Positions 39,088-45,339 of a DNA stretch of 64,000 nt are shown here, piece after piece (the first letter of the stretch is position 1; each line of letters begins with the position of its first letter). The stretch covers positions 2,542,001-2,606,000 of the forward strand of contig NZ_AP027058.1 of NCBI RefSeq assembly GCF_027925025.1, in the 5' to 3' direction. The position numbers and the translations under genes were made by a program. The notes under the pieces were generated by a model that saw only the letters and a list, made by a program, of their open reading frames with translations, made no database searches and was not told the DNA's origin. The DNA comes from Limnohabitans sp. MORI2. Lineage in GTDB: Bacteria; Pseudomonadota; Gammaproteobacteria; Burkholderiales; Burkholderiaceae_C.

Positions 39088-40059
39088 TCATGACCAACTG
39101 TTCGCTTGGCGCTCTGCTTTGCTTTTGTGTTGACGCCATTGTTTCACGGCCTCGTTGATGGCAGCCAGGTCGTGCATGACACACACGCGATCAATTTGTC
39201 GACGGCGCAACGCGGGGGCTGCACCACCAGCCCACACCTCCACAGAATCTGGCAACAAGGAATTGAGCTCCATCAAACCATCCACCACATGGTTGGGATT
39301 CATATTGACGCTAAAGCTCAAAGCCACCACATCTGCGCCGTGCGCTCTGGCTGCTTGTGCAATGTCACGCACAGGTGTTTGGGTTCCCAATGACACGCAG
39401 CGGCAACCTTGCAATGTGAGCAAACTCTCGACCATCAGCAGACCCAAGCCATGCGCTTCTTGCGGAAATGTGGTGAGCAGCACCGTGGGCTCCCCACCGC
39501 TGGCCGCTTGTGGAATCGCGACGATCGCTTGTCGCATCAAACTACCCGCACACTCGGTGTACAGATGCTCTTCATGCACCGCCAAATCACCACGCGCCCA
39601 GCCATCCCCCACCAGTGTGGTGAGCGGAGCCACCACATCGATCACAAAATTTTGCAGGCCATGCTGCGAGAGAGTTTTTAACAACTCTCGGCGTAGGCCT
39701 TCATGGTCTTGGGTTTTGAGCATCTCAATGTAGCGCATCAAATCTTCACGCACCTGCCCAGTGCCTCTAGTCTGACCTTCTTTCAAATGCGCCTCGCCAC
39801 GACTCAAGTGTTGTAAGACATCCATCGACAACGCCACGATGCGCCCAGGACGGTGGCCCTGGTCCATCAACCGCTTGATCACCCGTAACTTCTCAACCTG
39901 CGCCATGGGATACGTACGCTCATCGTTCGCATCACGACCTGGCATGGGAAAGCCATAGCGACGCTCCCAGACGCGCAAGGTGTCTTTGCCAATGCCCGTA
40001 TCACGCTCAACAGCAGCAATCGACAACGTCAAATTTGAATGGTCATCACGTGAGTTCAT
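39088..40059 (-). CDS. litR: MerR-type regulator with B12 photoreceptor domain (CarH/LitR class)
   Basis: Light-controlled repressor by homology. The MerR helix-turn-helix covers residues 11-75 (TGIGKDTLRVWERRYGFP). The C-terminal domain keeps the Wx9EH signature of adenosylcobalamin photoreceptors: Trp154, Glu164 and His165, exactly the CarH spacing. It also keeps the lower-axial cobalt ligand His203 in QEAHGLG. In the dark such proteins bind DNA with adenosylcobalamin; light breaks the Co-C bond and releases DNA. Start ATG 40059 has GGGAG upstream; the frame is open 78 codons further without homology. Divergent from the gpx-led operon it probably controls. Confidence 0.85.
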   Translation of the reverse strand: MNSRDDHSNLTLSIAAVERDTGIGKDTLRVWERRYGFPMPGRDANDERTYPMAQVEKLRVIKRLMDQGHRPGRIVALSMDVLQHLSRGEAHLKEGQTRGTGQVREDLMRYIEMLKTQDHEGLRRELLKTLSQHGLQNFVIDVVAPLTTLVGDGWARGDLAVHEEHLYTECAGSLMRQAIVAIPQAASGGEPTVLLTTFPQEAHGLGLLMVESLLTLQGCRCVSLGTQTPVRDIAQAARAHGADVVALSFSVNMNPNHVVDGLMELNSLLPDSVEVWAGGAAPALRRRQIDRVCVMHDLAAINEAVKQWRQHKSKAERQANSWS

Positions 40060-40095
40060 GACATGGAATCTCCCGTTGGTGAAAATGGAGAATAA

Positions 40096-40112
40096 TTCTG
40101 TCCTAGACAAAA
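40096..40112. promoter_or_regulatory. Candidate LitR operator palindrome
   Basis: An imperfect palindrome of the form TT-n-TGTC-n3-GACA-n-AA midway in the 99-base gap between the regulator gene and the gpx operon, 36 bases from the regulator start and 46 from gpx. A second TTGTCCT half-site lies at 40132-40138. MerR proteins bind dyad sites inside promoters. TAGACA (40104-40109) and CATGAT (40127-40132), 17 bases apart, could be the gpx promoter, so bound protein would cover it. Assignment to LitR is inference. Confidence 0.4.
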
Positions 40113-40158
40113 ATGGAATACTACGCCATGATTGTCCTCTATTCGGGAAGGGCTTGGC

Positions 40159-40743
40159 ATGAAATATCGTTTTGTTTTGATCTTTTTTTCTTTGTTGACA
40201 AGCCTCAGCGGGGCAAAGGCTGCCTCGGATGGCGCCACAACTGGGATTGACGCCTGTCCACGGGTGTTGCAACACACGGTTGCGCGTTTGCAAGACGAAA
40301 AGCCTCAGAACCTGTGTCAGTACGCCGGGCGCGTGGTGGTTGTCGTGAACACCGCCAGTTTTTGCGGGTTCACCTCACAGTACAAAGGACTCGAGGCCTT
40401 GCACGCCAAATACAAAGACCGTGGCTTGGTGGTGTTGGGCTTTCCCAGCAACGATTTCTCACAAGAGCCTGAGAGCAACGCCAAGATTGCCGACTTTTGC
40501 GAAAACACCTTTGGGGTGAAGTTCCCTATGTTTGTCAAAACCACGGTACGGGGCAAAGATGCATTACCGCTCTACCAGCAACTCGCCGAACAAACTGGCA
40601 CAACACCTAAGTGGAACTTTTACAAATACATCATCAGCCGAGACGGCAAAGACATCAAAAGCTACAACAGCATGACAGGCCCACAGGACAAAAGCTTTGT
40701 TCAAGAAATTGAAAAGCAGCTCGCCGCGAAAGGTACGTCTTGA
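40159..40743 (+). CDS. Secreted glutathione peroxidase family protein
   Basis: 194 residues with a signal peptide (cleavage after AKA, about residue 22), so a periplasmic member of the GPx (BtuE/Gpo) family. The peroxidatic Cys lies in NTASFCGFTSQYKGL, the catalytic Trp/Asn in PKWNFYKYI. The usual Gln motif is GFPSNDF, as in a branch of bacterial enzymes. It reduces lipid or other peroxides, probably with thioredoxin-like donors. Start ATG 40159 follows GGAAGGG. First gene of the six-gene operon; its TGA overlaps the next ATG. Confidence 0.88.
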   Translation: MKYRFVLIFFSLLTSLSGAKAASDGATTGIDACPRVLQHTVARLQDEKPQNLCQYAGRVVVVVNTASFCGFTSQYKGLEALHAKYKDRGLVVLGFPSNDFSQEPESNAKIADFCENTFGVKFPMFVKTTVRGKDALPLYQQLAEQTGTTPKWNFYKYIISRDGKDIKSYNSMTGPQDKSFVQEIEKQLAAKGTS

Positions 40744-42035
40744 TGAAACCTCGTATAGCCATTGTAGGCTCAGGCATATCGGGTCTGTCAGCTGCGCACC
40801 ATTTGCAGGGCCACGTCGAACTGACCCTGTTTGAAGCCGGCGACTACTTCGGTGGCCACACGCACACAGTCGATGTGACCTTGCCCACATCTACGGGCAT
40901 GCAAACCCACGGGGTGGATACCGGATTTTTGGTCTACAACGAACGCACCTACCCCGGTTTGATTGGCTTGTTTGAGACCCTAGGCGTTGAAACCGCGCCC
41001 TCAGACATGTCGTTTTCAGTGCAAGTGCCACACGCCAACGGCAAGGGCGCATTAGAGTGGAATGGGGCCAATCTCAACACCGTGTTTGCACAGCGCAGCA
41101 ATTTGCTCAAACCTCGCTTTTTGCGCATGCTGCAAGATGTGATTCGTTTCAACACCTTGGCCACCGAGCTGGCCGAACGCAACCAAGACCATGAGTTGGC
41201 GCAACCCCTGAGCGGTTTTTTGTTTTCGCACAAATTCAGCGATGCGTTTCGCGACTGGTATTTGTTGCCCATGTTGGGGTGCATTTGGAGTTGCCCCACT
41301 GATCAAATGCTCAAGTTCCCCGTGGCCACCATGATTCGGTTTTGTCACAACCACGGCTTGATCCAAGTAAACAACCGACCACAGTGGTACACCGTTGCAG
41401 GCGGGGCCCGCCACTACGTGGAAAAAATCGTCAGCCAAATCACCAACAAGCGACTCAACACACCCGTGCAACGCATCGTGCGCGATGCCCACAGCGTGAC
41501 GCTGCAAACCCACGCCGGGGCAGAGCGATTTGACCAAGTGATTTTGGCCAGCCATGCGGATCAGTCTTTAGCCATGCTCGCCGAACCCACAGCGCAAGAG
41601 CTCGCCACGCTGAGTGCCATTCGTTACCACCCCAATCGTGCGGTGCTACATACCGACACGTCGGTGATGCCGCAGAAAAAATTGGCCTGGGCGGCCTGGA
41701 ACTACGAGCGAGCAGCACAAGACAGCACAGAGTCCACCCGGGTGTGTTTGCACTACTGGCTCAATCTGTTGCAACCGTTACCGTTCACACAAAACGTGAT
41801 CGTCTCACTCAACCCAGTGCGTGACATCGATCCAGCCCATGTACTTGGTGAGTATGAGTACGCACACCCCGTGTTTGATCTGCCTGCCATCGAGGCACAA
41901 ACCCGCATGGCTGAACTGCAAGGCCAACACCACACATGGTATGCCGGCGCGTGGATGGGCTACGGGTTCCATGAGGACGGATTCAAAGCTGGCCGCGCAG
42001 CGGCGCAAGACCTACTGGCACGACTTGCCGCATGA
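40743..42035 (+). CDS. FAD-dependent amine-oxidase-like flavoprotein (COG2907 type)
   Basis: A 430-residue flavoprotein with the N-terminal FAD loop IAIVGSGISGLSAAHHL, a distal GxxxxG motif near GGHTHTVD, and the C-terminal signature WYAGAWMGYGFHEDGF. It is linked in many bacteria to DUF1365 and CFA-synthase-like genes, including the light- or singlet-oxygen-controlled clusters. There a flavoprotein of this type acts on methylated fatty acyl chains. Start ATG 40743 overlaps the gpx stop; its own stop overlaps DUF1365 by 4 bases. The reaction is inferred from context only. Confidence 0.85.
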   Translation: MKPRIAIVGSGISGLSAAHHLQGHVELTLFEAGDYFGGHTHTVDVTLPTSTGMQTHGVDTGFLVYNERTYPGLIGLFETLGVETAPSDMSFSVQVPHANGKGALEWNGANLNTVFAQRSNLLKPRFLRMLQDVIRFNTLATELAERNQDHELAQPLSGFLFSHKFSDAFRDWYLLPMLGCIWSCPTDQMLKFPVATMIRFCHNHGLIQVNNRPQWYTVAGGARHYVEKIVSQITNKRLNTPVQRIVRDAHSVTLQTHAGAERFDQVILASHADQSLAMLAEPTAQELATLSAIRYHPNRAVLHTDTSVMPQKKLAWAAWNYERAAQDSTESTRVCLHYWLNLLQPLPFTQNVIVSLNPVRDIDPAHVLGEYEYAHPVFDLPAIEAQTRMAELQGQHHTWYAGAWMGYGFHEDGFKAGRAAAQDLLARLAA

Positions 42036-42811
42036 ACCGCCAAGCACCCGCGCCATCACCACAGGCCTTGATCGGCTTTGGCCAAGTGCGTCACACGCGC
42101 TTGCGCCCCAAACGACATGCTTTCGCCTATAAGACCTTTTTTTTGATGCTCCCCATGCGAACCTTGTGCGCACAGGGGCATGAGCACCTGCCTATCAACC
42201 GTGCAGGTGCCATCAGTTTCCATGACGTGGATCACGGCGATGGCCGCCCTCTGCAAGCGGGCGGTGCTCTTGCATGGCTCGATGATTTGCTGCACAGCCA
42301 AGGCATTCATGACGCCACGGGTGAGGCGTGGTTGCACTGCTACCCGCGCGTGCTGGGCTACACCTTCAAACCCGTGAGCTTTTGGCATTGCCACACGGCC
42401 GATGACCGCTTGCGTGCGATCGTTGTCGAAGTCAACAACACCTTTGGCGAGCGTCATTGCTACTTGTTGGATGCCCCTCGCTACGGCCATGAACAGCGCG
42501 CCAGCAAAGTGTTTCATGTGTCTCCGTTTTGCCAAGTAGAAGGCGACTATCGATTCCGATTCATGCGCACAAAAAATCGCACCATCGCTTGTGTTGACCA
42601 CGACGATGCGCGTGGCCCCCTGATTCAAACCAGCGTCAGCGGACAGCTTGAACCCATCACAGCGGCCCAGCTACGGCATGCCCTTTGGGGCTACCCCCTG
42701 ATGACACTGATGGTGGTGGCGCGCATTCACTGGCAGGCCTTGAAGTTGTGGCTCAAGCGTGTGCCTTTTTTCACCAAACCCTCCCCTCCCCAAGATTTTG
42801 TGACCCGTTGA
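42032..42811 (+). CDS. DUF1365 protein
   Basis: A 259-residue protein of the DUF1365 family (COG3496) with the typical segments GFGQVRHTRLRPKRHAF, YPRVLGYTFKPVSFWHC and KVFHVSPFCQVEGDYRF. Function is not established biochemically; it nearly always lies next to the COG2907 flavoprotein and a CFA-like methyltransferase. Its ATG overlaps the previous stop (ATGA), so translation is coupled. A hydrophobic stretch near residue 225 may contact the membrane. Confidence 0.9.
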   Translation: MNRQAPAPSPQALIGFGQVRHTRLRPKRHAFAYKTFFLMLPMRTLCAQGHEHLPINRAGAISFHDVDHGDGRPLQAGGALAWLDDLLHSQGIHDATGEAWLHCYPRVLGYTFKPVSFWHCHTADDRLRAIVVEVNNTFGERHCYLLDAPRYGHEQRASKVFHVSPFCQVEGDYRFRFMRTKNRTIACVDHDDARGPLIQTSVSGQLEPITAAQLRHALWGYPLMTLMVVARIHWQALKLWLKRVPFFTKPSPPQDFVTR

Positions 42812-42828
42812 TTGAAAGAGCTTCTGCC

Positions 42829-44064
42829 ATGAACACCACCACCAGCCATGCCTTGCTTTCGAGCACAACGCACACACCACCTCGCAGCGTACAGCGCGTC
42901 ATAGCCCTGCTGCAACGCTTGAAACACGGCACACTGCATGTGCAGTGGCCCGATGGGCGTGTCGAGCAATTTGGTGACGCGTCCCCTGACGGCAAAGGCC
43001 TGAATGCCACCTTGCATTTGCACAGCTGGGCACCACTGACTCAAGCCTTGAAATCTGGCGACATTGGTTTTGCCGAAAGCTACATTGCGGGTGAATGGAC
43101 CACGAACAATTTAGCTGACTTGTTGCAGCTCCTAGTAGCCAACCGTCGCGACATGGAGGCTTTGATTTACGGACACTGGCTGGGCCGCTTGTTTTATCGC
43201 GTGCGTCATTTGCTCCACCGCAACACACGCAGCAACAGCAAGAAAAACATCCATGCCCACTACGACCTCGGCAATGCGTTTTATGAGCTGTGGCTTGACC
43301 CCACGATGAATTATTCATCTGCATGGTTTGACAACGACCGCACGCAGCCTATGGCTCAAGCACAAACCGCCAAAGTGCGCCGCGCCTTACGTATGGTCGA
43401 CGCCAAAGCAGGCGATCGCATTTTGGAAATCGGTTGCGGCTGGGGCGCTCTTGCCGAACTTGGCGGTCAAGAATTTGGTGCGCGCATGAGCGGCGTCACC
43501 TTGAGCCACGAACAACTCGCTTTCGCCAACGCGCGCATGCAAAGGTTGGGCTTATCCAACACCACCGATTTGCGTTTGCAAGATTACCGTGACATCCATG
43601 ATGGCCCCTACGACGCCATTTGCTCAATTGAAATGTTAGAGGCCGTGGGTCAAGAATATTGGCCCACGTATTTCGACACCGTAGCGCGTTTGTTGAAATC
43701 TGGCGGTAAAGCGTGCATCCAAACCATCGTGATCGATGACACCCTGTTTGATCGCTACGTCAAAAGCACCGACTTCATCCAGCAATACATCTTCCCCGGC
43801 GGCTGCTTGCCTTGCCCGCGCGAGTTCCGCAAGCAAGCCGAACGTGCAGGCCTGAAGGTGATCGACGAGTTGGCATTTGGACTGGACTACGCCGAGACCC
43901 TACGCCGGTGGCGTCACCAATTCATGGCCGATAAAGCACACGTGTTACAGCTTGGATTTGACGAACGATTCATTCGCATTTGGGAGTTTTATCTGGCGTA
44001 TTGCGAAGCCGCATTTGAACAACACAACACCGATGTGGTTCAATTCACCTTGATCAAACCTTAA
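42829..44064 (+). CDS. Cyclopropane-fatty-acid-synthase-like methyltransferase
   Basis: 411-residue SAM-dependent enzyme acting on unsaturated phospholipid acyl chains. The SAM loop is ILEIGCGWGALAE, and the Cfa signature segments YDLGNAFYELWLDPTMNYSSAWF (in two parts) and FIQQYIFPGGCLP are present. It could form cyclopropane rings or, as in alphaproteobacterial photo-oxidative clusters, methylate vaccenoyl chains on the way to furan fatty acids. Start ATG 42829 has AAAGAG upstream; a frame reaching 42685 is an extension inside DUF1365. The operon context favours a stress-inducible role. Confidence 0.9.
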   Translation: MNTTTSHALLSSTTHTPPRSVQRVIALLQRLKHGTLHVQWPDGRVEQFGDASPDGKGLNATLHLHSWAPLTQALKSGDIGFAESYIAGEWTTNNLADLLQLLVANRRDMEALIYGHWLGRLFYRVRHLLHRNTRSNSKKNIHAHYDLGNAFYELWLDPTMNYSSAWFDNDRTQPMAQAQTAKVRRALRMVDAKAGDRILEIGCGWGALAELGGQEFGARMSGVTLSHEQLAFANARMQRLGLSNTTDLRLQDYRDIHDGPYDAICSIEMLEAVGQEYWPTYFDTVARLLKSGGKACIQTIVIDDTLFDRYVKSTDFIQQYIFPGGCLPCPREFRKQAERAGLKVIDELAFGLDYAETLRRWRHQFMADKAHVLQLGFDERFIRIWEFYLAYCEAAFEQHNTDVVQFTLIKP

Positions 44065-44082
44065 ACCGTCTACTGCTTGCCG

Positions 44083-44868
44083 ATGTCCCTCTTTTTCAAG
44101 CCCATGAATCCACCGATCCAAGATTGGCGAGGTAGAAGTGTGTGGCTGATCGGCGCCTCCAGCGGCATCGGCTTAGCGACAGCCAAAGCGCTGCATGCAG
44201 CAGGCGCACGCGTGGTGGTATCCGCGCGTAACGCCGCAGCGTTGCAGCAATTTGTGGATGCGCATCCTGGTGCACAAGCGGTTGTACTGGACGTCACCGA
44301 CAAAGAGGCCATCACTGCGGCAGCCCGGTACGTTAGAAGTCAACAAGGTTTGGATGTGGTCATGTACTGCGCCGGCTATTACCAAGCGGTACGTGCGTCC
44401 ACCTATTCACTGCCCGAGATGCTGAAGCATCAAGAGATCAACTACACCGGCGCCCTACGCGTCCTAGACGCGGTCATTCCCGAACTGCTGCCGCAACAGC
44501 GTGGGCACATCAGTTTCATTTCTAGCGTGGCCGGTTTTCGCGGCTTGCCCAAGAGCTTGGCCTACGGCCCCACCAAGGCCGCACTCATTAACCTTGCTGA
44601 AGCCTTGTATTACGACTTGTCCGTTCACGGCATCGGCGTCAGCTTGATCGACCCAGGGTTTGTTGCAACACCCCTGGTTGCTGGCAATGACTTTCCCATG
44701 CCCGCACTCATCACCCCAGAAATAGCAGCCCAAGAAATCCTAAAAGGGTGGCGAAAAGGCGAATTCCACATCCATTTCCCCAAGCGCTTCACGCGCTTGT
44801 TGTTGCTGTTACGAGTCTTGCCCTACCGCGCATACTTTGCCTTGGTTCGCCAAGGTACGGGCATGTAA
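44083..44868 (+). CDS. Short-chain dehydrogenase/reductase of the lipid cluster
   Basis: SDR of about 261 aa with IGASSGIGLATAKAL (cofactor loop), the Ser in FISSVAGF, and YGPTK as YxxxK. The C-terminus is basic and hydrophobic (RFTRLLLLLRVLPYR), suggesting membrane association. It follows the methyltransferase by 18 bases. ATG 44083 is chosen; TTG 44077 and ATG 44104 are alternatives. Substrate unknown, likely a lipid intermediate given its neighbours. Confidence 0.88.
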   Translation: MSLFFKPMNPPIQDWRGRSVWLIGASSGIGLATAKALHAAGARVVVSARNAAALQQFVDAHPGAQAVVLDVTDKEAITAAARYVRSQQGLDVVMYCAGYYQAVRASTYSLPEMLKHQEINYTGALRVLDAVIPELLPQQRGHISFISSVAGFRGLPKSLAYGPTKAALINLAEALYYDLSVHGIGVSLIDPGFVATPLVAGNDFPMPALITPEIAAQEILKGWRKGEFHIHFPKRFTRLLLLLRVLPYRAYFALVRQGTGM

Positions 44869-44874
44869 AAACCC

Positions 44875-45339
44875 ATGGACATGCACGCAACGCCCGACAC
44901 AGTTGAAGCGGCCGCACAACGTGTGGTGGTATTTTTTGAGAACTTGCAACCCTCCGATCTCACTCGCCTTGAGACAATTTATACCGCTGATGCGTGTTTC
45001 AAAGATCCCTTTAACGACGTGCAAGGAATTGCGGCAATCAACCAGATCTTCGCCCACATGTTCGATGCACTTGACGCACCTCGTTTTGTGATCACGCAAT
45101 GCGTGCAGCAAGACACGCAATGCTTCGTGACATGGGACTTTTTGTTTGCGATACCACGCATGAACCAAGGCGCCACCCAAACCATACGTGGCGCTACCCA
45201 CTTAGTCCTGCGAGAAGAGCACGGCATGTGGCGCGTGGCTGTGCACCGCGATTACTGGGATGCCGCTGAAGAGCTGTACGAAAAGCTGCCTGTTTTAGGC
45301 AGCCTGATGCGCTGGCTCAAAAAACGGGTCAACCGTTAA
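44875..45339 (+). CDS. SnoaL/NTF2-like protein
   Basis: 154-residue protein with the NTF2-like cone fold pattern: RVVVFFENLQPSDLTRLETIY, a conserved CFKDPFNDV and C-terminal WRVAVHRDYWDAAEELYEKLP. Proteins of this group accompany DUF1365/CFA clusters. It may be a small enzyme or ligand binder for an oxidised lipid. Starts 6 bases after the SDR stop and ends the operon, just before a strong bidirectional terminator. Confidence 0.85.
   Translation: MDMHATPDTVEAAAQRVVVFFENLQPSDLTRLETIYTADACFKDPFNDVQGIAAINQIFAHMFDALDAPRFVITQCVQQDTQCFVTWDFLFAIPRMNQGATQTIRGATHLVLREEHGMWRVAVHRDYWDAAEELYEKLPVLGSLMRWLKKRVNR

What the first reader, a model, noticed from the sequence alone, without database searches (positions are those of the whole stretch)
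39088..45339. Light- and B12-gated lipid modification cluster
The regulator at 39088-40059 keeps Trp154, Glu164, His165 and the cobalt-ligand His203, so it should bind adenosylcobalamin and respond to light like CarH/LitR. It is divergent from six overlapping genes: secreted glutathione peroxidase, COG2907 flavoprotein, DUF1365, CFA-like methyltransferase, SDR, SnoaL-like. Related flavoprotein-DUF1365-CFA sets occur in LitR-controlled clusters and in ChrR/singlet-oxygen operons, where they make methylated or furan fatty acids that quench singlet oxygen. The secreted peroxidase at the head of the operon and the lack of an ECF sigma factor suggest a distinct, B12-photoreceptor-controlled version. 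Product and regulatory link are inference.
Basis: partly seen in the sequence, partly recalled or inferred. Interest (0 to 1): 0.72.

Follow-up and report, generated by a model that had tools for sequence, protein, structure and literature searches.

The report
Putative B12 light-switched membrane lipid operon
A freshwater-type bacterium carries a probable vitamin-B12 light sensor that, through a DNA site conserved in many relatives, seems to control a set of membrane-fat-modifying genes; the control link is well supported by comparison, but the light response and the fat that is made are untested.

Summary
In detail: a MerR/cobalamin-domain regulator (39088-40059, -) is divergent from gpx-flavoprotein-DUF1365-CFA-SDR-SnoaL (40159-45339, +); only 2 of 5 junctions overlap.

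New here: (1) A palindrome TGTC-N3-GACA (window 40099-40109, over a predicted -35) is exact in 80 of 111 orthologous divergent regions, but in 0 of 57 regions upstream of the same enzyme genes where no such regulator adjoins. (2) Trp, Glu, His and the cobalt-ligand His are kept in 113 of 116 orthologs; two lost all four, and the operator too. (3) His132, the light-state ligand of Thermus CarH, is never His (Met/Ala/Leu/Val/Ile in 114 of 116), so release by bis-His ligation is not expected. (4) Flavoprotein-DUF1365-CFA is the ufaD-ufaO-ufaM order of furan fatty acid synthesis; the CFA has C139S/H266Q, unlike the host's second Cfa, but cotton cyclopropane synthases share these changes, so the product is open. 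(5) Across 150 family genomes the gene set adjoins LitR (52), ChrR (12) or neither (47), never both.

LitR-controlled ufaM operons are known in Pseudomonas (LOV-gated, no B12). This is a new variant; light and B12 effects are predicted, not shown.

The parts
39088..40059 (-). LitR/CarH-like regulator: MerR HTH + four-helix bundle + cobalamin-binding Rossmann domain
40099..40109 (.). Predicted operator TGTCCTAGACA (palindrome TGTC-N3-GACA)
   Evidence: Exact in 80 of 111 orthologous divergent regions, 0 of 57 controls
40104..40132 (+). Predicted sigma-70 promoter TAGACA-17-CATGAT, -35 inside the operator
   Evidence: Consensus scan, 9 of 12; 2 sites found on 251 bp, 0.4 expected
40159..40743 (+). 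gpx: probably exported Cys-type glutathione peroxidase family protein
   Evidence: GSHPx E 3.4e-31; both Cys, Trp, Asn kept, usual Gln is Asp
40743..42035 (+). UfaD-like FAD flavoprotein (amine oxidase fold)
   Evidence: Amino_oxidase E 1.7e-18; solved relative LkcE E 2.8e-34
42032..42811 (+). UfaO-like DUF1365 protein
   Evidence: DUF1365 E 1.7e-79
42829..44064 (+). UfaM-like CFA-family methyltransferase, active site S-E-A-Q-I-Y
   Evidence: CMAS E 2.5e-82; residue comparison
44077..44868 (+). Short-chain dehydrogenase/reductase
   Evidence: adh_short E 9.6e-38
44875..45339 (+). SnoaL-like (NTF2-fold) protein
   Evidence: SnoaL_2 E 2.6e-13

Best explanation
A B12-domain LitR/CarH-family repressor controls a divergent membrane-lipid operon. 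In the dark the AdoCbl-loaded regulator sits on TGTC-N3-GACA over the -35 of the gpx promoter. Light breaks the Co-C bond, the regulator leaves, and gpx-ufaD-ufaO-ufaM-SDR-SnoaL are made. The UfaM-like enzyme methylates the double bond of unsaturated phospholipid chains, the UfaD-like flavoprotein adds a second double bond, the UfaO-like DUF1365 protein inserts oxygen from O2 to give a furan fatty acid that scavenges singlet oxygen, and the exported peroxidase removes lipid hydroperoxides. Because residue 132 is never His, the light state is expected to be of the CtMerR type (water and Glu at the cobalt) or to use another ligand, not bis-His. Shown by comparison: gene set, operator, coupling of operator to regulator, conserved cobalamin site. 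Inferred: AdoCbl binding, light gating, repression rather than activation, lipid product, scavenging.
For: Cobalamin site W-E-H-H in 113 of 116 orthologs; nearest folds are B12 photoreceptors; PduO-type adenosyltransferase in the genome. Operator exact in 80 of 111, at most one mismatch in 106 of 108 loci with an intact site and flank, 0 of 57 exact without an adjoining regulator. Both orthologs that lost all four residues also lack the operator. Independent pairs on the tree: operator goes with LitR in 5.2 of 8 on average, against in 0.0. Operator over the -35, as in CarH (PMC8156234, PMC9304148, passages). ufaDOM order and activities: PMC7380195. UfaM pattern A240/Q266 in 94 of 94 LitR-linked CFA rows and in the CFA next to DUF1365 of 20 of 20 LitR-less loci.
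Against: His132 absent in the whole clade and Thermus H132A mostly fails to dissociate. The GxxH element of the published light signature reads QxxH; NCBIfam's CarH model scores 112 against a cut-off of 400; the full classic B12 motif is matched by 32 of 116 and not by the window, a relaxed form by 100. Phylogeny-corrected pair test is only borderline: median p 0.06 exact, 0.03 with one mismatch. 31 of 111 loci have no exact operator, and L192 has an operator without ufa genes in reach. Cotton cyclopropane synthases share C139S/H266Q. Similarity to the tested Rhodobacter or Rhodopseudomonas enzymes was not measured.
Confidence: 0.55

Rival explanations
1. The regulator binds cobalamin and controls this operon but is no light switch: it reports AdoCbl supply or redox/oxygen state, or acts without B12 like CarA.
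For: No His132 in 116 of 116 orthologs; Thermus H132A stays mostly tetrameric in light (PMC10442372); CarA binds its operator without B12 (PMC8156234).
Against: CarA lacks the Trp of Wx9EH (PMC9304148), kept here in 113 of 116; CtMerR without that His is light-responsive (PMC11796333); any bound AdoCbl would be photolabile.
Confidence: 0.25
2. The operon makes cyclopropane or only methyl-branched fatty acids, not furan fatty acids. (About the product; compatible with the best explanation's regulation.)
For: Cotton cyclopropane synthases carry Q at 266 and, in two of three, S at 139 (PMC3132707, passages). Halomonas UfaM in E. coli gave the methylated acid, and cyclic acids were also seen (PMC12089945, passages).
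Against: Operon holds DUF1365 (UfaO) and the flavoprotein (UfaD) in the tested order; the host has a separate Cfa with the E. coli-type active site.
Confidence: 0.3
3. Light is sensed by another protein (a short LOV partner, as with class II LitR of Pseudomonas) and the cobalamin domain is only structural.
For: PmSB-LOV inactivates PmlR2 at a ufaM operon promoter in P. mendocina (PMC9758184).
Against: Class II LitRs lack the second B12 domain; here it is present with its ligand His. A LOV search of the genome was not run.
Confidence: 0.05

Closest known systems
CarH of Thermus thermophilus / class I LitR
   Same: MerR HTH plus two-part cobalamin domain, Wx9EH, ligand His, operator over a sigma-70 -35
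   Different: About 31% identity; no His132, no R176/D201 pair (A202/Q227; the role of that pair is recalled); palindromic operator; lipid genes instead of carotenoid genes
CtMerR (Chloracidobacterium thermophilum), PDB 8JBS
   Different: Arg at that position; 20% identity over the aligned part
PmlR/PplR class II LitR with ufaM operon, Pseudomonas
   Same: LitR-family control of an operon with FAD oxidoreductase, UfaM and SDR (PMC9758184)
   Different: No B12, LOV partner, TGTACA-type sites, photolyase in the cluster
RpoE/ChrR furan fatty acid genes, Rhodobacter sphaeroides
   Same: UfaD, UfaO, UfaM and companion genes (PMC7380195)
   Different: Control by an ECF sigma factor; no ChrR cupin found in this genome
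Class III LitR of Burkholderia multivorans
   Same: Same bacterial order, LitR family
   Different: Said to use another chromophore and to have an unrelated C-terminus (second-hand); the paper itself is not held

Membership tests
LitR/CarH family, AdoCbl type (class I) | MerR HTH with RxWERRY-type recognition helix | tested here: met
   R.W[EQ][RK]RY in 116 of 116; MerR_1 E 1.7e-10
LitR/CarH family, AdoCbl type (class I) | Both B12 domains (PF02607 and PF02310) | tested here: met
   26.2 and 46.1 bits, above cut-offs 23 and 32.1
LitR/CarH family, AdoCbl type (class I) | Wx9EH and lower-ligand His (E-x-H-x2-G) | tested here: met
   Window W154...E164H165, E201-A-H203-G-L-G206; W-E-H-H in 113 of 116
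LitR/CarH family, AdoCbl type (class I) | Full classic motif D/ExHx2G/Px41SxT/Vx22-27GG | tested here: not met
   Window fails (S instead of T/V); 32 of 116 match, relaxed form 100 of 116
LitR/CarH family, AdoCbl type (class I) | AdoCbl binding and light release | not testable with these tools
   Needs protein
CarH proper (Thermus-type) | Upper light-state ligand His132 | tested here: not met
   Ala155; never His in 116. Not universal among light-responsive members
CarH proper (Thermus-type) | NCBIfam CarH equivalog cut-off | tested here: not met
   112.3 bits against 400
CarH proper (Thermus-type) | Tandem 11-bp repeats TnnACA as operator | tested here: inconclusive
   ACA 11 bp downstream of the palindrome's ACA in 7 of 39 sites, 0-3 at most other offsets, 6 at +4
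SignatureFinder B12 photoreceptors | GxxW, EH, GxxH, GxxxP | tested here: not met
   Three of four; GxxH is QxxH in the window, G in 35 of 116 orthologs
Furan fatty acid (ufaD-ufaO-ufaM) operon | FAD flavoprotein, DUF1365 and CFA-family genes in that order | tested here: met
   order of RPA2571-2570-2569 from PMC7380195
Furan fatty acid (ufaD-ufaO-ufaM) operon | Orthology to the tested R. sphaeroides/R. palustris enzymes and furan product | not tested
   Those sequences were not obtained; a Paracoccus ECF-linked copy is 46% identical in CFA and has the same S-E-A-Q-I-Y pattern
Canonical (E. coli-type) cyclopropane synthase | C139, E239, H266, I268, Y317 | tested here: not met
   S, E, Q, I, Y; cotton enzymes deviate likewise yet belong to cyclopropane synthases
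RpoE/ChrR system | ChrR cupin (PF12973) | tested here: not met
   0 matches in the own genome; 5 of 14 control genomes ring

The most novel reading that the evidence does not exclude
A large betaproteobacterial clade of B12 photoreceptors has given up the bis-His light state (His132 replaced by Met, Ala, Leu, Val or Ile) and uses another cobalt chemistry, perhaps Met ligation in over a third of members, to gate furan fatty acid shielding of the membrane through its own palindromic operator, as an interchangeable alternative to ChrR on the same enzyme genes.
Probability: 0.4. Interest if true: 0.72.

Novelty: new variant of a known kind. Interest (0 to 1): 0.58.

Why it matters
It would tie B12 light sensing to membrane lipid chemistry rather than pigments in common freshwater bacteria (Limnohabitans, Polynucleobacter, Rubrivivax). 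It supplies an operator to test and more than 100 natural sequences for the open question whether the bis-His state is needed for light release. Regulator swapping (LitR, ChrR/ECF, TetR) on one enzyme set also lets the trigger of furan fatty acid synthesis be compared across species.
Full report
WHAT IS THERE. The regulator (39088-40059, -) and the six genes to its right are open reading frames with clear family matches. The genome is one contig of 2.65 Mb. The closest named relatives of the regulator are Burkholderiales/Comamonadaceae MAGs and Limnohabitans. The flanks (glnE-like, a cytidylyltransferase of rfaE2 type by my reading, GST, purB-like) are shared with relatives.

OPERATOR. In a first set of 37 upstream regions (4 of 41 loci were dropped for lack of an exact recognition-helix string), TGTC-N3-GACA was the most frequent spaced 4-base palindrome, exact in 27; mononucleotide shuffles gave 0.15 on average, at most 2 in 200. 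In the larger set it is exact between the regulator and the first gene in 80 of 111 loci. With an intact W-E-H-H site and enough flank, 79 are exact, 27 have one mismatch and 2 have more. The centre base is A or T in 83 of 84 sites. In the window it is TGTCCTAGACA at 40099-40109, covering the -35 of the predicted promoter TAGACA-17-CATGAT. Of the 12 TGTCHDDGACA places on the + strand of the own genome it is the only one with a C/T-A/T-A/G centre. The same-genus genome G080 has it with one mismatch. A second ACA 11 bp on, as in CarH repeats, is seen in 7 of 39 sites, which is weak.

CONTROLS. Fifty-seven flavoprotein-DUF1365 loci without this regulator in the stretch (11 beside ChrR, 46 not; five of these genomes, G030, G037, G111, G117 and G143, carry LitR elsewhere, and in G037 a contig break may part them) have 0 exact sites and 4 with one mismatch in the 300 bp upstream of the first gene (155 bp in one). 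LitR-linked loci by the same measure have 59 exact, 21 with one mismatch and 28 with more, of 108. With 450 bp: 21 of 36 exact against 0 of 56; with one mismatch allowed, 31 of 36 against 6 of 56. On a quick tree of flavoprotein+DUF1365 (93 rows) the LitR label changes at least 22 times, 8 forced by well-supported branches. Of 8 independent pairs the operator went with LitR in 5.2 on average, against in 0.0, no difference in 2.8; median sign-test p 0.06 for exact sites, 0.03 with one mismatch: right direction, borderline weight. Two orthologs (L057 GQRE, L062 GQRG) lost all four cobalamin residues and have no operator within one mismatch; L057 also lacks flavoprotein, DUF1365 and CFA, and whether the two losses are independent is unclear. 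A counter-example is L192 (WEQH), with an operator but no ufa genes in reach. A stricter pattern, TTGTCHDDGACAAA, has 38 matches (both strands, the clusters' own sites included) in 20 LitR+ genomes against 7 for the reversed pattern, and 6 against 3 in 20 genomes without an ortholog. The window's own site does not meet the stricter pattern.

ENZYMES. PMC7380195 (passages) shows that UfaM, UfaD and UfaO act in sequence to a furan fatty acid, that UfaO is a DUF1365 protein and that R. palustris RPA2571-2570-2569 are UfaD, UfaO and UfaM; the window has that order. Flavoprotein, DUF1365 and CFA are each in 92 of 96 LitR loci with at least 5.2 kb of flank, gpx in 61, SDR in 83, SnoaL in 76, and three genes the window lacks, chalcone-isomerase-like, MFS and DUF3833, in 71, 65 and 66. 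The CFA protein has S, E, A, Q, I, Y where E. coli Cfa has C139, E239, H240, H266, I268, Y317; the host's other full-length CFA gene has the E. coli pattern. All 94 LitR-linked rows (window included) carry A240 and Q266, and so do the CFA genes next to DUF1365 in the 20 LitR-less loci compared and an ECF-linked Paracoccus plasmid copy. Glu239, His266 and Tyr317 hold the catalytic bicarbonate in E. coli Cfa (PMC11387697, passages). But cotton cyclopropane synthases carry Q266 and, in two of three, S139 (PMC3132707, passages), so the pattern marks a class, not a product. The peroxidase keeps both cysteines and has Asp for the usual Gln in 68 of 69 orthologs.

REGULATOR SWAPPING. Of 150 genomes of the family, 111 have DUF1365. 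By positions have LitR within 8 kb, 12 have ChrR within 8 kb, none both, 47 neither. The ChrR list is cut at weak E-values, so ChrR linkage may be undercounted, and the 64 genomes I called LitR+ include some partial or weak matches. LitR and DUF1365 co-occur in 58 genomes, LitR alone 6, DUF1365 alone 53, neither 33 (Fisher p 5.7e-5, not corrected for kinship). In G061 a TetR-family gene stands in LitR's place, and on a Cupriavidus plasmid a helix-turn-helix gene that looks TetR-like by eye.

KNOWN OR NEW. In Pseudomonas, class II LitR without B12 and with a LOV partner controls an operon with FAD oxidoreductase, UfaM and SDR (PMC9758184: abstract, introduction, first part of results, discussion). 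In V. cholerae a MerR-like protein and ChrR share the blue-light response, and a CFA gene is light-induced (PMC5241685, passages). So the theme is known; a B12-domain regulator with its own operator on a ufa operon is the variant. Listings of searches did not show it described. Named relatives with the cluster and an exact operator include Limnohabitans Jir61 and B9-3, Rubrivivax gelatinosus IM 151 (cut by the contig end), R. benzoatilyticus JA2 and three Polynucleobacter, and outside the family Azoarcus sp. KH32C, on a plasmid.

LIMITS. No light, B12, DNA-binding or lipid data exist for this organism here. An adenosyltransferase is present; photosynthetic reaction-centre genes were not found. 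The fold of DUF1365 gave no firm relative.

Noticed in passing
window 44064-44077; L032 12248-13449 (G080): The window lacks the chalcone-isomerase-like, MFS and DUF3833 genes that most relatives have between CFA and SDR; the same-genus genome keeps the first and third.
   Followed up: partly
L036 9045-9935, L139 11869-12744 and others: A ferritin-like diiron protein with a weak acyl-ACP-desaturase match (PF03405, E 5.1e-07) lies on the regulator's side in 47 of 116 loci; not found beside the window's regulator.
   Followed up: partly
L090, L093, L096, L269; L105, L267; L114, L117; L107: In some LitR+ relatives the strict operator also lies near iscR (G012, G064, G103, G114), between two TerC-family genes (G064, G113), about 95 bp upstream of a chemotaxis-receptor-like gene (G014, G062) and by a transglutaminase-like gene (G113): a possible wider regulon.
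   Followed up: partly
L270 (Azoarcus sp. KH32C plasmid pAZKH, 711500-724500): A plasmid classed as mobilizable carries the whole regulator plus flavoprotein-to-SnoaL cluster, with an exact TTTGTCCTAGACAAA.
   Followed up: partly
L122-L126, L129-L131: Eight of the nine ChrR-linked loci among L122-L141 hold a second CFA-like gene with an E-H-H-F-Y pattern; role unknown.
   Followed up: no
L158, L173: MAG records titled Bordetella parapertussis hold orthologs closest to freshwater-type Burkholderiales; the titles look wrong (not tested).
   Followed up: no
window 40159-40743: The gpx family keeps both cysteines but has Asp for the catalytic Gln in 68 of 69 members.
   Followed up: partly
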